From an uncultured bacterium (GTDB taxonomy: Bacteria; Armatimonadota; HRBIN16): 42,603 nt of DNA. The position numbers were made by a program, and so were the translations under genes. Below the pieces are notes generated by a model. It saw only the letters and a list, made by a program, of their open reading frames with translations. It did no database searches and had not been told where the DNA came from. This document shows, in pieces, positions 28,187 to 42,200 of this stretch. The DNA lies in contig CALJAP010000090.1 of assembly GCA_938027655.1 (NCBI GenBank), positions 1 to 42,603 on the forward strand, read 5' to 3'. How positions within the stretch are numbered: the stretch's first letter is position 1; the number at the start of each line of letters is the position of its first letter.

Positions 28187-28966
28187 CTACCGAGCAGACA
28201 CCTGCTGTAGCACCCACGACACCTCTTCGGCAGATAGAGTCACCGGCAGAGCCTGCCGGTAGTCCACCAATCGGTGATACGCTCCCTCCTCATAACAGCG
28301 TGTGAAGGCTTGCTGCAGGTCTAACACCACATCGGGGTCGCCTTCCAGCAAGGGTACCCAGACCCGCGGTAAACGTTCTTTCAGCGTCACGGGCCACACT
28401 TCATAGCTCGCGCCGCTGCCCGCCCGATGCAGGCAGACCAGATAGTCATAGGCGCGAGGTATGTGGTGTTTGGGCACAGCCACCGTATGCTCTCCGCCAT
28501 GAAGGAGGTCTATTTCCAGCAGGTGCACCTGGCTGGCGAGCAGCTCCGCCTGTTTCTGCAAGTAAAGCTCTCTGCCTGGGTGCCCCGGCGCCTTGTTCGT
28601 ATGGCTGAGCACCTCGATAATCGTGACCACGCGATAGTCCAATTTGGGTGCAACAATCTTGATGAAGGCTTCGCGCACTTCATGCAATGCGAGGAGGGCT
28701 TTAATCTGAATCGGCGGGTCGGCTACAGCGGTGGCAGCAGATGATGGAGATGGCGTTACGGGCTTGGTCTGCACCACCACAACATCGGGGCGCATGTCGC
28801 GCTCGCTTTGCACAATGTACAGTCGTTCTTCCACATCCGCTACGTATGCTTCTGGAAGAACCGCGTTCAGCTGTGCGCGGATGGCGTTAATCAACCCATC
28901 ATGCACGCCACCCCAGAGCGCGGGGTTCTCCAGATAGGGGTCCATTCCGGGAAACGGGCTGGGCAT
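28187..28966 (-). CDS. DUF4058 family protein
   Basis: A 259-aa protein with the family opening MPSPFPGMDPYLENPALWGGVHDGLINAIRAQLNAVLPEAYVADVEERLYI, then DMRPDVVVV and a middle segment (VVTIIEVLSHTNKAPGHPGRELYLQKQAELLASQVHLLEIDLLHGG) whose IIEVLS...K and EIDLLHGG strands resemble the E/D-x-K core of restriction-like nucleases. DUF4058 proteins are common in cyanobacteria and related groups and have no proven function; a link to Uma2-like folds is my inference. The second ATG (28966) is chosen over the GTG one codon earlier. It stands alone. Confidence 0.88.
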   Translation of the reverse strand: MPSPFPGMDPYLENPALWGGVHDGLINAIRAQLNAVLPEAYVADVEERLYIVQSERDMRPDVVVVQTKPVTPSPSSAATAVADPPIQIKALLALHEVREAFIKIVAPKLDYRVVTIIEVLSHTNKAPGHPGRELYLQKQAELLASQVHLLEIDLLHGGEHTVAVPKHHIPRAYDYLVCLHRAGSGASYEVWPVTLKERLPRVWVPLLEGDPDVVLDLQQAFTRCYEEGAYHRLVDYRQALPVTLSAEEVSWVLQQVSAR

Positions 28967-29008
28967 CACTTTTCACCGGTGATATTGTAGCCTGAGCTGC
29001 TACGCCTG

Positions 29009-30109
29009 TCAAACTCGTCTCTCCACTTCTCTCAGAAAGGCTTCTGCCTCATCCACGCTGCGGAAGCCCTCGCCAACGGTCAACCACACGCCTTTTGCCC
29101 CGACCGCCTCCAGCACAGTGAGCGCGTCCTGCGCGGACTCGGCAATCACCTGCACGCTTTTGCCCGCCTGCAGGCAGCGACGGTAAACCTCTATCCAGCG
29201 CGAAGCGGGTCCCTGCCCTGCACCGTACACCCACTGTATCGCGTGCAGGTTCGGGATGTCCAGCAATAGGGGCAAATGCTTCAGTGCGCCCACCCCATCC
29301 AGATGGAAGATGCTTCGCTCTAGAGGCTCCATCTCGAACAGGATGTCGGGCAGAATCATTTCCCGCGCCATTTCGGGCGAGACCATGATCCAGAAGTCGC
29401 AGCTGGGCACGTAGTAGCTGCCTTCGTGGTAGGCGTTGAGCCAGGTGGTGCAGCCGAACCCTGCTTCCGCTATTTTCGCATAGCTGCGCTCGAAGCTCCG
29501 CACGAACGCTTTCGCCACATGCCTGCCCGCCTGCACAATCAGGTCAGGGCAGTCCAGCATGTCCATGCACAGCATCTGCGGGTCACGCAGGGCGGCGAGG
29601 ATGTCGTAGTTACCGTGTAAATCGGTGATGCCCACGATGTACCGCCCCTCACACCGCTGAACGGCGTAGTCGGTCATGCGTTCAACGGTCTGCCAGTAGG
29701 GGTTCTCGAAGTCAGCCTGCGTACGCAAGATGCGATGCCAGTCTTCTGGTTCGTGCACAACAGGCTTCGACCAGCTGGTGCTCTCCGAAAACTCCAGCTC
29801 GCAGCCGAACAGCGTGGCGGTGATTTCGGGCCCGAGGTTGGGCCAGAACATGGGAAAGTTGTCGCCCACATAATCGTGGCACTCCATCCATGCGATGGCG
29901 GAATCCACCACGTACTCCACATCCATCCACCGCTCACGTAAAGATGCGTGCTGTTTAACCGGTCCCCGATATGGGCGTGATGGGGCAACGTGCAAGGTGA
30001 CCGGTGGACGATCCACTATCTCACGATGCCACCATGCTTCGAACCGCTCCACCGTTTTGCCGAAATCAGGTTTCCACTTCAGCTCGTGTATCAACCGCGT
30101 TTCCTCCAC
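29009..30109 (-). CDS. URO-D-like TIM-barrel protein, paralog 2
   Basis: A 366-aa protein of the uroporphyrinogen decarboxylase/methyltransferase-like superfamily. It lacks the N-terminal RQAGR motif of HemE, so it is not the haem enzyme. Conserved parts shared with its upstream paralog: FWPNLGPEITATLFG, DLHGNYDILAALRDPQMLCMDMLD, CDFWIMVSPEMAREMILPD and FHLDGVGALKHLPLLLDIPNLHAIQWVYGAGQG. Relatives act on corrinoid-bound methyl groups or sugars. The gene starts at a GTG inside the last 19 bases of the paralog, pointing to translational coupling. The two may form a heterodimer; that is inference. Confidence 0.8.
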   Translation of the reverse strand: MEETRLIHELKWKPDFGKTVERFEAWWHREIVDRPPVTLHVAPSRPYRGPVKQHASLRERWMDVEYVVDSAIAWMECHDYVGDNFPMFWPNLGPEITATLFGCELEFSESTSWSKPVVHEPEDWHRILRTQADFENPYWQTVERMTDYAVQRCEGRYIVGITDLHGNYDILAALRDPQMLCMDMLDCPDLIVQAGRHVAKAFVRSFERSYAKIAEAGFGCTTWLNAYHEGSYYVPSCDFWIMVSPEMAREMILPDILFEMEPLERSIFHLDGVGALKHLPLLLDIPNLHAIQWVYGAGQGPASRWIEVYRRCLQAGKSVQVIAESAQDALTVLEAVGAKGVWLTVGEGFRSVDEAEAFLREVERRV

Positions 30110-31179
30110 TTTTTGGACTGTCGGACGAGTTCATCTGCCTGCTCGGGGGTGCTGGTGTATGTGCTTATCATCACGCCGCGTGTGCCGATGGCTTCCACTA
30201 GCGGCTGCACGCTTTCAGGCGGAACCCCCAGAGCCAGCACACCCTTGCCCGCCTTCAACGCCTTCTGGTACAGCGGATACCAGCAGGGGTCGCCTGCGTG
30301 CGGTTGTCCTGCGCCCGGCGTCCACTGGATGGCATCCAGTTTGTTGATACTGCACAGCGCGTCCAGATGCTTGATGGCATTCACACCGTCTAGGTGGTAG
30401 ATGGTGTTGTCCAGTCGCTCGCATTGCTGCTCCAGGTAGGGCAGAACAAATTCGTTAAACAGCTCCGGGCTGATCATACACGACATGTCGCACTGCAGTT
30501 TGCAGGTTCGTCCGATGCCCCAGATGTTGAACGCTGAGAAGACGGTTCCGCCATCCTCATCGCGGATAATCGGCTCGAAGGCGTCATAGTAATCGAAGTA
30601 CCGCTCCAGAATCTGCCTCTGCAGGCGATGCACGTGTTCAGGATGGTCTACGAGGTCGGTGAGCAGCCCCAGCGTGCCGCGCAGGGACGCCAGCGTATCC
30701 AGATTCTCCACAAAGTCGGGAAAGCTCACCAGCGCCTTGCCCTTGAAGTGCTCCATCGCCTGCCGAGCCATCTCGGTGTTTATCTTCCAGTACTTCTCGT
30801 CGGGGTTGTACGGCGGTATCTGCGCGGTGGTGATGTCATCGAATACCTTGCCATACCACACGGTGTTATGGTCAAAGGTGGGTGGGCTACCCAGATGGAT
30901 GGCGAGACTGCCCGGTCCTAGGTTGGTATCGAACCAGGGAAAGCCATCACCGCCGTGATAGGTATGGGCGAAGTGCCACTCTTGCTCGGTGATGCGATAC
31001 TCGATGTCCAGCCAGCGTTGCTCCGGCGTAGGGTCGGGTTTAGGCGGAGGAACGTCTACCACCGGCTTCTCGAGCGGCGCGTACACGATGAGAAGCGGTC
31101 CCTCCATCTCCTCTCGCGCCCACCATGCCGTGTAGCGCATTTTGACATGGTGCCAATCCGGTTTGTACAGCAGCGACAC
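30091..31179 (-). CDS. URO-D-like TIM-barrel protein, paralog 1
   Basis: A 362-aa homolog of the downstream gene, with matching blocks (FDTNLGPGSLAIHLG, DFVENLDTLASLRGTLGLLTDLVD, CDMSCMISPELFNEFVLPYLE, YHLDGVNAIKHLDALCSINKLDAIQWTPGAGQPH). The CDMSCM segment and the Cys-rich CKLQCDMSCM stretch could hold a metal, unlike the other copy. No HemE signature is present. The start is a GTG at 31179 with GGGAGG about 8 bases upstream. It is divergent to the hydrolase at 31308, with 128 bases between. Function unknown; corrinoid or sugar chemistry is possible. Confidence 0.8.
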   Translation of the reverse strand: MSLLYKPDWHHVKMRYTAWWAREEMEGPLLIVYAPLEKPVVDVPPPKPDPTPEQRWLDIEYRITEQEWHFAHTYHGGDGFPWFDTNLGPGSLAIHLGSPPTFDHNTVWYGKVFDDITTAQIPPYNPDEKYWKINTEMARQAMEHFKGKALVSFPDFVENLDTLASLRGTLGLLTDLVDHPEHVHRLQRQILERYFDYYDAFEPIIRDEDGGTVFSAFNIWGIGRTCKLQCDMSCMISPELFNEFVLPYLEQQCERLDNTIYHLDGVNAIKHLDALCSINKLDAIQWTPGAGQPHAGDPCWYPLYQKALKAGKGVLALGVPPESVQPLVEAIGTRGVMISTYTSTPEQADELVRQSKKWRKRG

Positions 31180-36295: not shown

Positions 36296-36317
36296 GAACA
36301 AGAACCTCTCCCCCATT

Positions 36318-36468
36318 CCCTCTCCTACGCGGAGAGGGGAGCCGTTTGCACAACATCCCTCTTCCCTTGCAGCAAAGGTTGAACGATGTTAGATAACCTC
36401 TCCCCCCCTCTCCTACACGGAGAGGGGTGTCTCGCCTCGGAGGCCCCCTTCCCCTGTGGGGAAGGGGG
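36318..36468. terminator. Three hairpins between convergent genes
   Basis: The 197-base gap between the convergent PEP-CTERM and DUF2325-like genes holds three strong stems: CCCTCTCC/GGAGAGGG around TACGC (36318-36338), CCCTCTCC/GGAGAGGG around TACAC (36406-36426) and an 11-bp CCCCCTTCCCC/GGGGAAGGGGG around TGT (36444-36468). None has a T-run on either strand. The first two share the sequence of the hairpin at 11995, so this is a dispersed repeat type that may serve as bidirectional terminator. Confidence 0.55.
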
Positions 36469-36492
36469 ACGGGGGGATAGGTTCGAACACAT

Positions 36493-38313
36493 CTATCCCC
36501 TGCCGCACTGTTCCACAATCTGCTGTGCCAGATGGGTGACACCGTAACCCTTCGTCGCCATCACGAACTGTTTGCCGTACTGCTTGGCGATGTCGCGAGC
36601 CTCTTTCCAGCGCGTTCGGCTATAGCGCACCACCACAACGGTCATGTCGGCATTGCGGATACGCGCCTCCATGCTGTTCACGCTCTCGGCACCGTCCAGG
36701 TCGGGCCAGTCCACCTCGGCAAACTGCAGCGCCTCGCGGATATGCTGCTCCGCCTCCGCTCGCCGGTTAAAGCAGAGCATGAACAGCTTTTTGCCCTGCG
36801 TGATTTTGCGGGCTTCGCTCAGCAGGTCGCCGTTATGTTCGGGCTGAGGTTCCTCTTCCGGCTGTTGCTCCTGCGGCGCCTCTTTCTGTTCGCTCTTGAG
36901 CAGTTGTTTGCCCACGTTCACCAGAAACTTGCGAGCCGAGCTCTGTTCGGATTTTGTCAAAGCGCACCGATCCGGTACGGCAGGGTTTTCCAGCAAGAAA
37001 TCGTAGCCGCTCATCAGCGCACACAGTTCCTTATTCGAGTATGGTATTTGCGCCCGATGGCATGCGACCAGTGCGCACAGCAGGTCTTCCTCAAAGGTGT
37101 CTGGATTGGGCGCAGAGAGAACCGCTTGCAGTCGGGCAATCGCCTCCCGCTGTTGCGCCTTCTTCTGTACGCATCGCTTTGCCTCTTCCCAGTGCTCGTC
37201 AGCGTGTTTGATGAAATGCGATTGCCTTTGACGCGAGCTGTTTGCCGCCAGCATATCGAGGTCCCATTTGCGCGCTCTGGCTTCTTCCTGCACTGCATCA
37301 CGCAATGTGTCCGCCCCGTCCTGCTCAGCCAGTCTGCTCAGCAGTTGTTTAGATGTCCAGATTTGCTGAACCATCGGCACCGGAGCGGCGATGCTTTCCA
37401 GCAGAGGCACGCCGACGCCTTTGTCCATATCGGCGCGATGCTGTTCATACCATCTCCACATCTGCCAGCTTCTCGCCAGAGCCTCATAGCCGGTCTGCAG
37501 CGTTTCCAGCTCGTGCTCACTGAAATCGATGCCGAGGTCTAGGGGAGGTAACCACAGGTTGCGAAACCGTTCCTTAGCAAGGGTGGTCAGCTGCCTCTTC
37601 AGCTGGCTGGCATCCCACTCTCGCCCGTACACGGCTGCTTCAGGCTGTATCAGACGATAACGACACGCACATGCCAACAGCAGAGGCACCGCCTCTTCGC
37701 GAGCAAGGGTATGGTTCTCTACATAGTCAAGCCAGCTTGCCAAAGCCTCTAACCGCCCCGATAGCCGATTGCGCGCTTCTTCTTCCCGGGTGTCAACAGG
37801 CTCCGCAACCTTCCCTTCCGTTTGCGGTTGGGTGGGTTCAGCAGCAGGCGGGGCGGTGCTGGCTGGGGTAGGAGGCGTTTCAGTCACACTCGCCATTTGC
37901 GCTTCACCCTCTGCAGATGCGGTAGCAGGTACCTGTTCCACCGGCGGCTCCGCTTCCACTGGCTCCTCCGCTGCCCCTTGCGACGGCGAGGAGGAAACCG
38001 TTTGCTGCGAGAACGTCCATCCCTCCACCATCCGGTACATTGCCCGGAGAGCAAGAGGTATCTCGTCATCCTCGCAAGCGGCTGTCATTTCACAGAGCGC
38101 GTACAGCGCTTGTAGCGTGCTGGCTCCGCTAGCGGGTATCTCCCCACCTACACGGAGGGTTCTCCAGACCAACGTGAGGAAGTCCACAGTCAAAAGCAGA
38201 TGACGACGGCTGTCGCGATCGAGGCTTCGTGCTCTCATGCATGGCGCAAGAGCCAAAATAGCTTGTTCAGCCTGAAAGCACATCTCGGTAGATGTTGCGT
38301 CACCGGTAAGCAT
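36493..38313 (-). CDS. Orphan protein with DUF2325-like C-terminal domain
   Basis: A 606-aa protein. Residues 1-105 are helical; a Pro/Glu/Ala-rich linker (about 110-175) follows; then a long helical region (RLEALASWLDYVENHTLAREEAVPLLLACACRYRLI ... RKWDLDMLAANSSRQRQSHFIKHADEHWEEAKRCVQKKAQQREAI). The last 95 residues, KKLFMLCFNRRAEAEQHIREALQFAEVDWPDL ... RNADMTVVVVRYSRTRWKEARDIAKQYGKQFVMATKGYGVTHLAQQI, match the general pattern of DUF2325, a Rossmann-like domain of unproven function. I compared it from memory only. The ATG at 38313 has GGGAGGG 8 bases upstream. No partner gene lies on the same strand nearby. No signal or membrane segment is visible. Confidence 0.7.
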   Translation of the reverse strand: MLTGDATSTEMCFQAEQAILALAPCMRARSLDRDSRRHLLLTVDFLTLVWRTLRVGGEIPASGASTLQALYALCEMTAACEDDEIPLALRAMYRMVEGWTFSQQTVSSSPSQGAAEEPVEAEPPVEQVPATASAEGEAQMASVTETPPTPASTAPPAAEPTQPQTEGKVAEPVDTREEEARNRLSGRLEALASWLDYVENHTLAREEAVPLLLACACRYRLIQPEAAVYGREWDASQLKRQLTTLAKERFRNLWLPPLDLGIDFSEHELETLQTGYEALARSWQMWRWYEQHRADMDKGVGVPLLESIAAPVPMVQQIWTSKQLLSRLAEQDGADTLRDAVQEEARARKWDLDMLAANSSRQRQSHFIKHADEHWEEAKRCVQKKAQQREAIARLQAVLSAPNPDTFEEDLLCALVACHRAQIPYSNKELCALMSGYDFLLENPAVPDRCALTKSEQSSARKFLVNVGKQLLKSEQKEAPQEQQPEEEPQPEHNGDLLSEARKITQGKKLFMLCFNRRAEAEQHIREALQFAEVDWPDLDGAESVNSMEARIRNADMTVVVVRYSRTRWKEARDIAKQYGKQFVMATKGYGVTHLAQQIVEQCGRG

Positions 38314-38529
38314 CACAGCACCCTCCCTGAGAAGAATGTGTGTTGTATCTCTTTAGACACATAGATTCCCAAAAAAGTTTCAATTTGGCACTTACATACA
38401 TACAAACGACAAATTCAAGCGCGAAAATGGCAGGCTCAGCTGGCAGGGAAACACGAGGTCTTCGCCGTAAGTGAAAATTGCGGAGCGCGTCATTGTGGGC
38501 GCAGACGAGAAAACAGGAGGAAAAAACTT

Positions 38530-40989: not shown

Positions 40990-41065
40990 TGGAGCCGACG
41001 GGCGGATTCGAACCGCCGACCTACGCATTACGAGTGCGCCGCTCTGCCAACTGAGCTACGCCGGC
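40990..41065 (-). tRNA. tRNA-Thr (anticodon CGU)
   Basis: On the minus strand: acceptor GCCGGCG pairs with CGTCGGC, discriminator T, encoded CCA. D arm GCTCAGTTGGCAGAGC; anticodon stem GCGCA / TGCGT with loop CTCGTAA (CGT); T arm GGCGGTTCGAATCCGCC. Its 5' end is 5 bases from the CCA of the tRNA-Pro fragment, so the two were once a Pro-Thr tRNA array. Confidence 0.95.
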
Positions 41066-41070
41066 ACATC

Positions 41071-41119
41071 TGGTCGGGGTGAGCGGACTTGAACCGCTGA
41101 CCTCCTGGCCCCCATCCAG
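41071..41119 (-). other. 3' half of tRNA-Pro(GGG), probable attachment site
   Basis: On the minus strand: CTGG, loop ATGGGGG (anticodon GGG), CCAGGAGGTC, T arm AGCGGTTCAAGTCCGCT, CACCCCG, A, CCA. This is a tRNA-Pro from the anticodon stem to the end. The matching 5' half (CGGGGTG... expected) is absent; instead three 10-bp tandem repeats fill the place. A displaced tRNA 3' half beside a tyrosine recombinase gene is the classic trace of integration, with the intact tRNA-Pro expected at the other end of the element, right of the window. Confidence 0.8.
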
Positions 41120-41147
41120 TCCGAGACAGTCCGCGACACTCCCAGAC
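41118..41147. repeat. Three tandem 10-bp repeats at the element boundary
   Basis: AGTCCGAGAC AGTCCGCGAC ACTCCCAGAC: three abutting 10-base units with two to three differences. They take the place of the tRNA-Pro 5' half between the tRNA remnant and the promoter. Ten bases is one helical turn, so they could be same-face binding sites for the recombinase or a helper protein. Confidence 0.6.
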
Positions 41148-41163
41148 AGCTAGTTGCACTATT

Positions 41164-41193
41164 ATTGTACCACAACCCCCTAAGTGCTGTCAA
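41164..41193 (-). promoter_or_regulatory. Strong minus-strand promoter reading into tRNA-Thr
   Basis: On the minus strand: exact TTGACA (41193-41188), 18 bases, TACAAT (41169-41164, 5 of 6). The start point would be near 41157, directly before the tandem repeats, the tRNA-Pro remnant and tRNA-Thr. It lies on the element side of the junction, between the recombinase gene and the tRNA. Confidence 0.75.
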
Positions 41194-41243
41194 CCTAATA
41201 CTTCAAATCGCAAGAAACATTGCATAGGAGGAGGATGCACACC

Positions 41244-42200
41244 ATGGCAAGAGAAGGTCAGCGCAAGGGTAACCGTTTGGTCAAGAATGAACGTGCGTTC
41301 AACCCTGACAGTCTGGATTGGATCCTGAAGGAGTACATCACCTGGATGAAGGTCACCCGCAAGAGACGCACGATTGAACACGCCGAAAGCTACCTCAAGA
41401 AGTTCATCCGCTGGTGTCACGAACAGGGCGTGGAGAACATTCACGACCTGCAGAGGTCGCACATCATGGGGTGGCAAGCGCATCTGCTGGAACACTACAA
41501 GAGTCGCGCTACCGTGTGGTCTATCAATTGTGATGTACGCGCCTTCCTCAACTGGTGCGTGCGAGAGGAGATTATCAAATCTCCACCGTTTAAGCACGGC
41601 GACTTCATCGCTAAGCCCAAGCCCAACCCGAAACCGTTGCGTGTGGATGATGTGCAGAAACTGATTGACGCCACAGACGGTAAGGGCTGGATAGCCGCGC
41701 GAGACCGCGCACTGGTAATCACTCTACTGTATACAGGCGTACGAAGCGGTGAACTGGTGCAGATGAAGGTAAGTGATCTGGACCAGCAGTCCTTCACCGT
41801 CATCCAGAAAGGCGACCGACAACACGTGGTGCATCTCAACGCGGAGTGTATCCACGAGATACGACGGTATCTCAGACTGTTCATGCGCGATACAGGAAGA
41901 CGATTGAGTGCAGATGACGCGCTATGGCAGTCCACACGGGGAGAACCCCTGTCAGGCAATGCACTCCGATTGATCATGAAACGACTGTCCGAGAAGGCAG
42001 GGGTACACGTGTGGGCACATCGATTGAGAGCCACTAGCGCCACACTGAGACTGGCAATGGGCGCTAGCACCGAACTGGTGAGAGAACAACTCGGACATAG
42101 CAGCTTAGAAAGCTTAAGGTCTTACGTCAAACTCGCAGAAGAGGATCGGGCTAGACTGCTGGACGAGACCAGTCCCCTCAAGTTCGTCAAGAAACGGTAA
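41244..42200 (+). CDS. Tyrosine recombinase / integrase
   Basis: A 318-aa site-specific recombinase. N-terminal SAM-like core-binding domain (SLDWILKEYITWMKVTRKRRTIEHAESYLKKFIRWCHEQGVENIHDL, about 20-110). Catalytic domain: YTGVRSGEL (Arg I), VIQKGDRQHVVHL (Lys), HRLRATSATLRLAMG (HxxR) and LGHSSLESLRSYVKL with His and the nucleophilic Tyr. All catalytic residues are intact. AGGAGGAGG lies 9 bases before the ATG at 41244; the ATG at 41235 is right on it. Position beside a tRNA 3' half and its outward direction from it mark it as the element's integrase. The basic C-terminus (PLKFVKKR) is normal. Confidence 0.95.
   Translation: MAREGQRKGNRLVKNERAFNPDSLDWILKEYITWMKVTRKRRTIEHAESYLKKFIRWCHEQGVENIHDLQRSHIMGWQAHLLEHYKSRATVWSINCDVRAFLNWCVREEIIKSPPFKHGDFIAKPKPNPKPLRVDDVQKLIDATDGKGWIAARDRALVITLLYTGVRSGELVQMKVSDLDQQSFTVIQKGDRQHVVHLNAECIHEIRRYLRLFMRDTGRRLSADDALWQSTRGEPLSGNALRLIMKRLSEKAGVHVWAHRLRATSATLRLAMGASTELVREQLGHSSLESLRSYVKLAEEDRARLLDETSPLKFVKKR

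What the first reader, a model, noticed from the sequence alone, without database searches (positions are those of the whole stretch)
36493..38313. Orphan 606-aa protein with a DUF2325-like C-terminal domain
A long helical region is tied by a Pro/Glu-rich linker to a Rossmann-like terminal domain of unknown chemistry. The gene is isolated by triple hairpins on one side and a divergent gene on the other. Of the single genes here it is the best candidate for an undescribed function, possibly stress or nucleotide sensing.
Basis: inference. Interest (0 to 1): 0.5.

Follow-up and report, generated by a model that had tools for sequence, protein, structure and literature searches.

The report
Divergent DUF2325 protein of Armatimonadota
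This is a real, conserved stand-alone gene for a two-part protein (a helical body joined to a small Rossmann-like domain related to the unstudied DUF2325 family); relatives occur across one bacterial phylum and, for the end domain, on Deinococcus plasmids, but what it binds or does has never been tested.

Summary
Window 36493-38313 (-) is a real 606-aa gene: in same-genus genomes it diverges with dN well below dS. It has a helical N-terminal bundle, a Pro/Glu-rich linker, a helical middle, a second short linker and a C-terminal Rossmann-like domain (AlphaFold2, pLDDT 92).

DUF2325 kinship is real but remote. The window protein alone scores 15.9 bits on PF10087 (cut-off 33.6). However, 13 of 24 relatives match PF10087 (best 2e-6), and the family profile recovers a canonical DUF2325 protein.

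It is not an orphan. The end domain occurs in 46 of 291 Armatimonadota genomes, in two ancient clades that largely follow host lineage, and on eight Deinococcus plasmids. No neighbour is conserved beyond close relatives; no defence family matched it. Two genomes of the genus have the HEAT-GH4 site without it.

The strand-end loops, where such folds bind ligands, are strongly conserved. The window's genus has uniformly replaced the family's Gly-Gly (Cys-Phe) and the commonest His (Thr) there, while staying under purifying selection. Best reading: a stand-alone ligand-sensing or adaptor protein with altered chemistry in this genus. The 'triple hairpins' are an interspersed repeat. Function is untested.

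The parts
36493..38313 (-). gene for the 606-aa DUF2325-related protein (ATG at 38313, stop at 36493-36495)
   Evidence: same-genus orthologues with dN well below dS
38321..38327 (-). GGGAGGG, probable ribosome-binding site
   Evidence: read directly from the sequence
38002..38313 (-). residues 1-104: N-terminal four-helix bundle, fast evolving
   Evidence: AlphaFold2 model; 52-60% identity to four same-genus orthologues, 22% to G002
37798..38001 (-). residues 105-172: Pro/Glu/Ala-rich disordered linker 1
   Evidence: pLDDT below 50 over 104-170; 19-26% identity to orthologues
36883..37797 (-). residues 173-477: alpha-helical middle region with the 'xPxSNxxL' stretch (residues 424-430)
   Evidence: pLDDT about 80-95 over most of it; family alignment; no fold match at E <= 0.001
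36835..36882 (-). residues 478-493: short Pro/Glu/Gln-rich linker 2
   Evidence: pLDDT below 50 over 478-507 in the whole-protein model; sequence
36496..36834 (-). residues 494-606: DUF2325-related Rossmann-like domain, four strands and five helices; invariant W536, conserved D556; genus-specific C514-F515 in place of Gly-Gly and T567 in place of His
   Evidence: model pLDDT 92, pTM 0.86; conservation by column; PF10087 sub-threshold here, 13 of 24 family members match

Best explanation
A stand-alone protein (signal or membrane segments were not looked for with a dedicated program) in which a helical body, probably for self-association or partner binding, presents a C-terminal Rossmann-like DUF2325-related domain that binds a small ligand, possibly nucleotide- or nucleoside-like, in the loops at the C-terminal ends of its strands. 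Ligand binding would change the contacts of the helical body, making it a sensor or adaptor rather than part of a gene cluster. In the window's genus the family's Gly-Gly after strand 1 and the His after strand 3 are uniformly Cys-Phe and Thr, so this version probably binds a different ligand, or has kept binding or scaffolding without any chemistry the others may have. Shown: real gene, domain anatomy (by prediction), homology, position of conserved residues, genus-specific substitutions, lack of conserved partners. Inferred: ligand binding, ligand type, the sensor/adaptor role.
For: End-domain model pLDDT 92 with Rossmann-like order. Residues in the four strand-end loops (a set I chose from the DSSP string) are more conserved than random residues of the domain, permutation p = 0.0013, with W 1.00, G 0.88 and 0.83, and H 0.57 / K 0.25 among the top columns. 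All six complete genus sequences have C-F and T at the key positions, while dN in the domain is 0.06-0.15. No neighbour is conserved beyond close relatives. Top BFVD fold matches include several deoxyribosyltransferase-like proteins and a DUF2325 protein, best E 3e-4. DUF2325-like domains recur as C-terminal modules on unrelated bodies: a TPR-like body in G308, a coiled-coil-like one in G016 (read from the sequences), another body in Deinococcus.
Against: No ligand, partner or phenotype is known. The PDB fold search gave no match at E <= 0.001, and the profile comparison with deoxyribosyltransferases is weak and rests on three sequences. The loops at the opposite edge of the sheet are nearly as conserved on average (2.07 vs 2.18), and D556 lies at that edge, so the conservation does not single out one binding edge. 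The role of the helical body is a guess.
Confidence: 0.35

Rival explanations
1. An enzyme of nucleotide or nucleoside metabolism: the strand-end loops form a catalytic site, as in nucleoside 2-deoxyribosyltransferases, and the helical body assembles the oligomer.
For: Several deoxyribosyltransferase-like folds among the top viral fold matches; invariant Trp and a mostly conserved Gly-Gly and His/Lys.
Against: No Nuc_deoxyrib_tr (PF05014) match in 24 members at E <= 0.1; hhalign 14%; no conserved acidic residue evident by eye at the deoxyribosyltransferase catalytic Glu position; Gly-Gly and His lost in the window's genus.
Confidence: 0.12
2. An oxidative-stress protein, like the short DUF2325 protein Cj1384 of Campylobacter jejuni, which lies by katA and is regulated by PerR.
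For: cj1384c rose 352-fold under violet-blue light and sits in the katA cluster (PMC9426514).
Against: Cj1384 is 104 aa with seven cysteines; the window end domain has two (C514 and C603). No redox-defence gene seen among the neighbours scanned.
Confidence: 0.12
3. A replicon-maintenance factor: on Deinococcus plasmids the relatives often lie near replication or partition genes, and the chromosomal forms may act in DNA maintenance.
For: Near RepA in D. taeanensis (1.1 kb), D. sp. NW-56 (0.3 kb) and D. wulumuqiensis (3.5 kb), near ParB in D. proteolyticus (0.4 kb), near HU and nucS in D. gobiensis P3.
Against: Noticed after the fact; large Deinococcus plasmids can carry two or three RepA genes. 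No replication or partition gene among the Armatimonadota neighbours scanned. Only the end domain is detectably homologous.
Confidence: 0.1
4. An anti-phage defence protein with a TIR- or SLOG-like end domain acting as sensor or effector.
For: Large helical protein with a small Rossmann-like end domain; a plant TIR domain is among weak PDB fold matches (E 0.028); the genus has sites without the gene.
Against: No PADLOC match for the window protein; three family members had weak DpdC matches (best E 0.0034), none of them among the ten members rescanned; no defence genes among neighbours scanned; the tree clusters by host family, 10 changes against 27 by shuffling.
Confidence: 0.06

Closest known systems
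DUF2325 (Pfam PF10087)
   Same: Same order of motifs: glycine-rich loop after strand 1, conserved Asp before strand 3, (S)H/(S)R motif after it; canonical members L083 and L084 pass PF10087 and are recovered by the family's own profile, L084 weakly.
   Different: The window protein is below the curated cut-off and has lost Gly-Gly and the His; a helical body of nearly 500 aa precedes the domain.
Hypothetical proteins of Deinococcus plasmids (e.g. WP_014682798.1, D. gobiensis P3)
   Same: C-terminal domain homologous: hhalign 99% probability, E 9e-18; long N-terminal body.
   Different: Bodies not detectably homologous; found here on plasmids, often near replication or partition genes; six aligned members retain a G in the GG loop and have GH or AH instead of RT.
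Nucleoside 2-deoxyribosyltransferase-like folds
   Same: Similar predicted fold in the viral library.
   Different: No sequence-family match; weak profile comparison; no matching catalytic Glu seen by eye.
Cj1384 of Campylobacter jejuni
   Same: Described as a DUF2325 protein (PMC9426514).
   Different: 104 aa, seven Cys, in the katA cluster; its sequence was not compared here.

Membership tests
DUF2325 (PF10087) | score above the curated cut-off (33.6 bits) | tested here: not met
   15.9 bits, E 0.015; only 2 of 291 genomes of the phylum have any match above it
DUF2325 (PF10087) | homology to canonical members | tested here: met
   13 of 24 family members match PF10087, best 2.1e-6; the family's C-terminal profile, built without it, finds the canonical L083 protein at E 1.1e-5
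DUF2325 (PF10087) | glycine-rich loop after strand 1 and (S)H motif after strand 3 | tested here: not met
   C514-F515 and T567 in the window and the other complete genus sequences; present in many other family members
Nucleoside 2-deoxyribosyltransferase (PF05014) | match to the family model | tested here: not met
   none of 24 members at E <= 0.1; hhalign probability 14%
known anti-phage defence systems (PADLOC) | match of the window protein to a defence model | tested here: not met
   no match at E <= 1; none in ten relatives at E <= 0.2; weak DpdC matches in 3 of 24
Cj1384-type oxidative-stress DUF2325 | linkage to katA / PerR regulation | not tested
   only a selection of neighbours was examined; no katA-like or PerR-like gene among them

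The most novel reading that the evidence does not exclude
DUF2325-related end domains on large helical bodies form an undescribed class of ligand-gated adaptor, one branch serving plasmid or chromosome maintenance in Deinococcus, and the window's genus holds a version in which the ligand site has been remade while the domain stayed under strong selection.
Probability: 0.12. Interest if true: 0.55.

Novelty: new variant of a known kind. Interest (0 to 1): 0.3.

Why it matters
DUF2325 has no known biochemical function, and only four papers in the held library mention it. A divergent, long-lived family with two ancient clades, a high-confidence domain model and a genus-specific loss of the most conserved residues gives a natural set of variants with which to test what the domain binds.

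Tried and rejected
Defence: no PADLOC match for the window protein; DpdC matches in 3 of 24 members (best E 0.0034) were not seen in the ten members rescanned and were not pursued. Conserved partner genes: none beyond close relatives. Solved homologues by sequence: only weak matches, the best E about 0.1, telomeric repeat-binding factor 2 over the helical part. Fold search of the whole model: no match at E <= 0.001. Phage records: no match for the Deinococcus protein; PHROGs: one unnamed family in 3 of 50 members. An antisense ORF over the end domain is not open in all orthologues; the lower synonymous divergence there goes with higher GC3. Absence from G004, G005 and G009: G009 has the site without the gene; G005 and G004 remain undecided.

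Full report
The observation. The ORF at 36493-38313 (-) is 606 aa from an ATG preceded by GGGAGGG. It is a real gene: five complete same-genus orthologues are 47-69% identical, an HRbin16 partial ORF 86%, with dN 0.21-0.52 against dS 1.3-2.6 over the whole length. The end domain evolves slowest (dN 0.06-0.15).

Anatomy. AlphaFold2 with six orthologues gives an N-terminal four-helix bundle, a disordered Pro/Glu/Ala linker (104-170 below pLDDT 50), a well-predicted helical middle, a second disordered stretch and a poor C-terminus. With 50 sequences the end domain alone reaches pLDDT 92, pTM 0.86, with four strands and five helices in Rossmann-like order.

What it is related to. The window protein scores 15.9 bits on PF10087 against a cut-off of 33.6; NCBIfam and PADLOC give nothing. 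A phylum search with the genus alignment found relatives in 38 of 291 genomes, and with the end domain in 46 of 291, 28 of 156 genera. In an alignment of 24, thirteen match PF10087, best 2.1e-6. A profile made without it finds the DUF2325 protein of G013 at E 1.1e-5; that protein passes the Pfam cut-off. The end domain is therefore a remote DUF2325 relative.

Two clades. A midpoint-rooted tree of 48 sequences separates two well-supported groups; five genomes of family f9 and one of f8 have a copy in each. Host families cluster (10 changes against 27 by shuffling), which points to mostly vertical descent. The main sequences of the window's genus sit on a long stem branch (1.27).

Conserved residues. 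The residues in the loops at the C-terminal ends of the four strands, a set I chose from the DSSP string, average 2.18 bits against 1.72 for the domain (permutation p 0.0013); the loops at the other edge average 2.07, so the contrast between edges is small. The strongest columns are W536 (100%), D556 (92%, before strand 3), Gly-Gly after strand 1 (88%, 83%), and His/Lys after strand 3 (57%/25%). The window and the other complete genus sequences have Cys-Phe and Thr there.

Fold comparison. PDB: no match at E <= 0.001 for the end domain, generic Rossmann-like folds at TM about 0.5. Viral library: best E 3e-4, with several deoxyribosyltransferase-like proteins and one DUF2325 protein near the top. 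A profile comparison with three deoxyribosyltransferase-family sequences gave 14%. By eye, no conserved acid aligns with their catalytic Glu.

Context. In the window and three other genomes of the genus the gene lies between a HEAT-repeat gene and a GH4 gene; a PEP-CTERM gene also lies there in the window and in G007, and a similar gene in G006. In G002 and G009 the HEAT and GH4 genes are adjacent without it; G002 has a more divergent copy elsewhere, and no copy was found in G009. Thirty neighbour genes around relatives were scanned with Pfam: assorted metabolic, transport and regulatory genes, some without a match, none of defence, replication or partition type. In family f9 a gene whose G054 copy is a class-I glutamine amidotransferase precedes the second copy in three genomes. 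The hairpin stretch downstream folds strongly (z -5.8) but has 42 matches in the genome.

Deinococcus. tblastn found relatives on eight Deinococcus plasmids: homologous end domain (hhalign 99%, E 9e-18), bodies not detectably so. They lie near RepA in three plasmids, ParB in one, HU and nucS in one, and topA by a degenerate copy. This was noticed after the fact, and large plasmids carry up to three RepA genes; it is a lead, not a result.

Literature. Four papers in the library mention DUF2325; the most informative reports that cj1384c of Campylobacter, in the katA cluster, rises 352-fold under violet-blue light, function unknown (PMC9426514). A DUF2325 protein is listed as possible secondary cargo of an anammox encapsulin system (PMC6934571).

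Verdict. A real, old, single-gene family, new as an architecture but built on a known unstudied domain. I favour a ligand-binding sensor or adaptor whose genus-specific form has altered chemistry (0.35); enzyme, oxidative-stress, replicon-maintenance and defence readings are less likely.

Noticed in passing
window 36300-36490: Interspersed repeat with strong hairpins, 42 matches in the window's own genome; related copies lie near the same gene in the G006 and G007 loci.
   Followed up: partly
window 40990-42200: tRNA-Thr (CGT) beside a tyrosine recombinase gene (41220-42200), a layout typical of an integrated element; the contig ends shortly after.
   Followed up: no
L003 / L014 (G001, HRbin16): The gene is split into two overlapping frames (residues 1-119 and 116-606) in the linker region; frameshift or assembly error.
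   Followed up: no
L148-L155 (Deinococcus plasmids): Relatives often lie near RepA, ParB, HU, nucS or topA genes.
   Followed up: partly
L156 1885-4680 (G308): A 931-aa protein with a methyltransferase- and TPR-like body and a DUF2325-like C-terminus, in a genome outside the phylum.
   Followed up: no
window 36496-36834: The last 113 codons have higher GC3 (0.80 vs 0.64 for the whole gene) and lower synonymous divergence than the rest.
   Followed up: partly
window 28187-31179: DUF4058 (PF13267) protein of unknown function, followed by two adjacent genes (29009-30109 and 30091-31179) that resemble each other and match Pfam only weakly.
   Followed up: no
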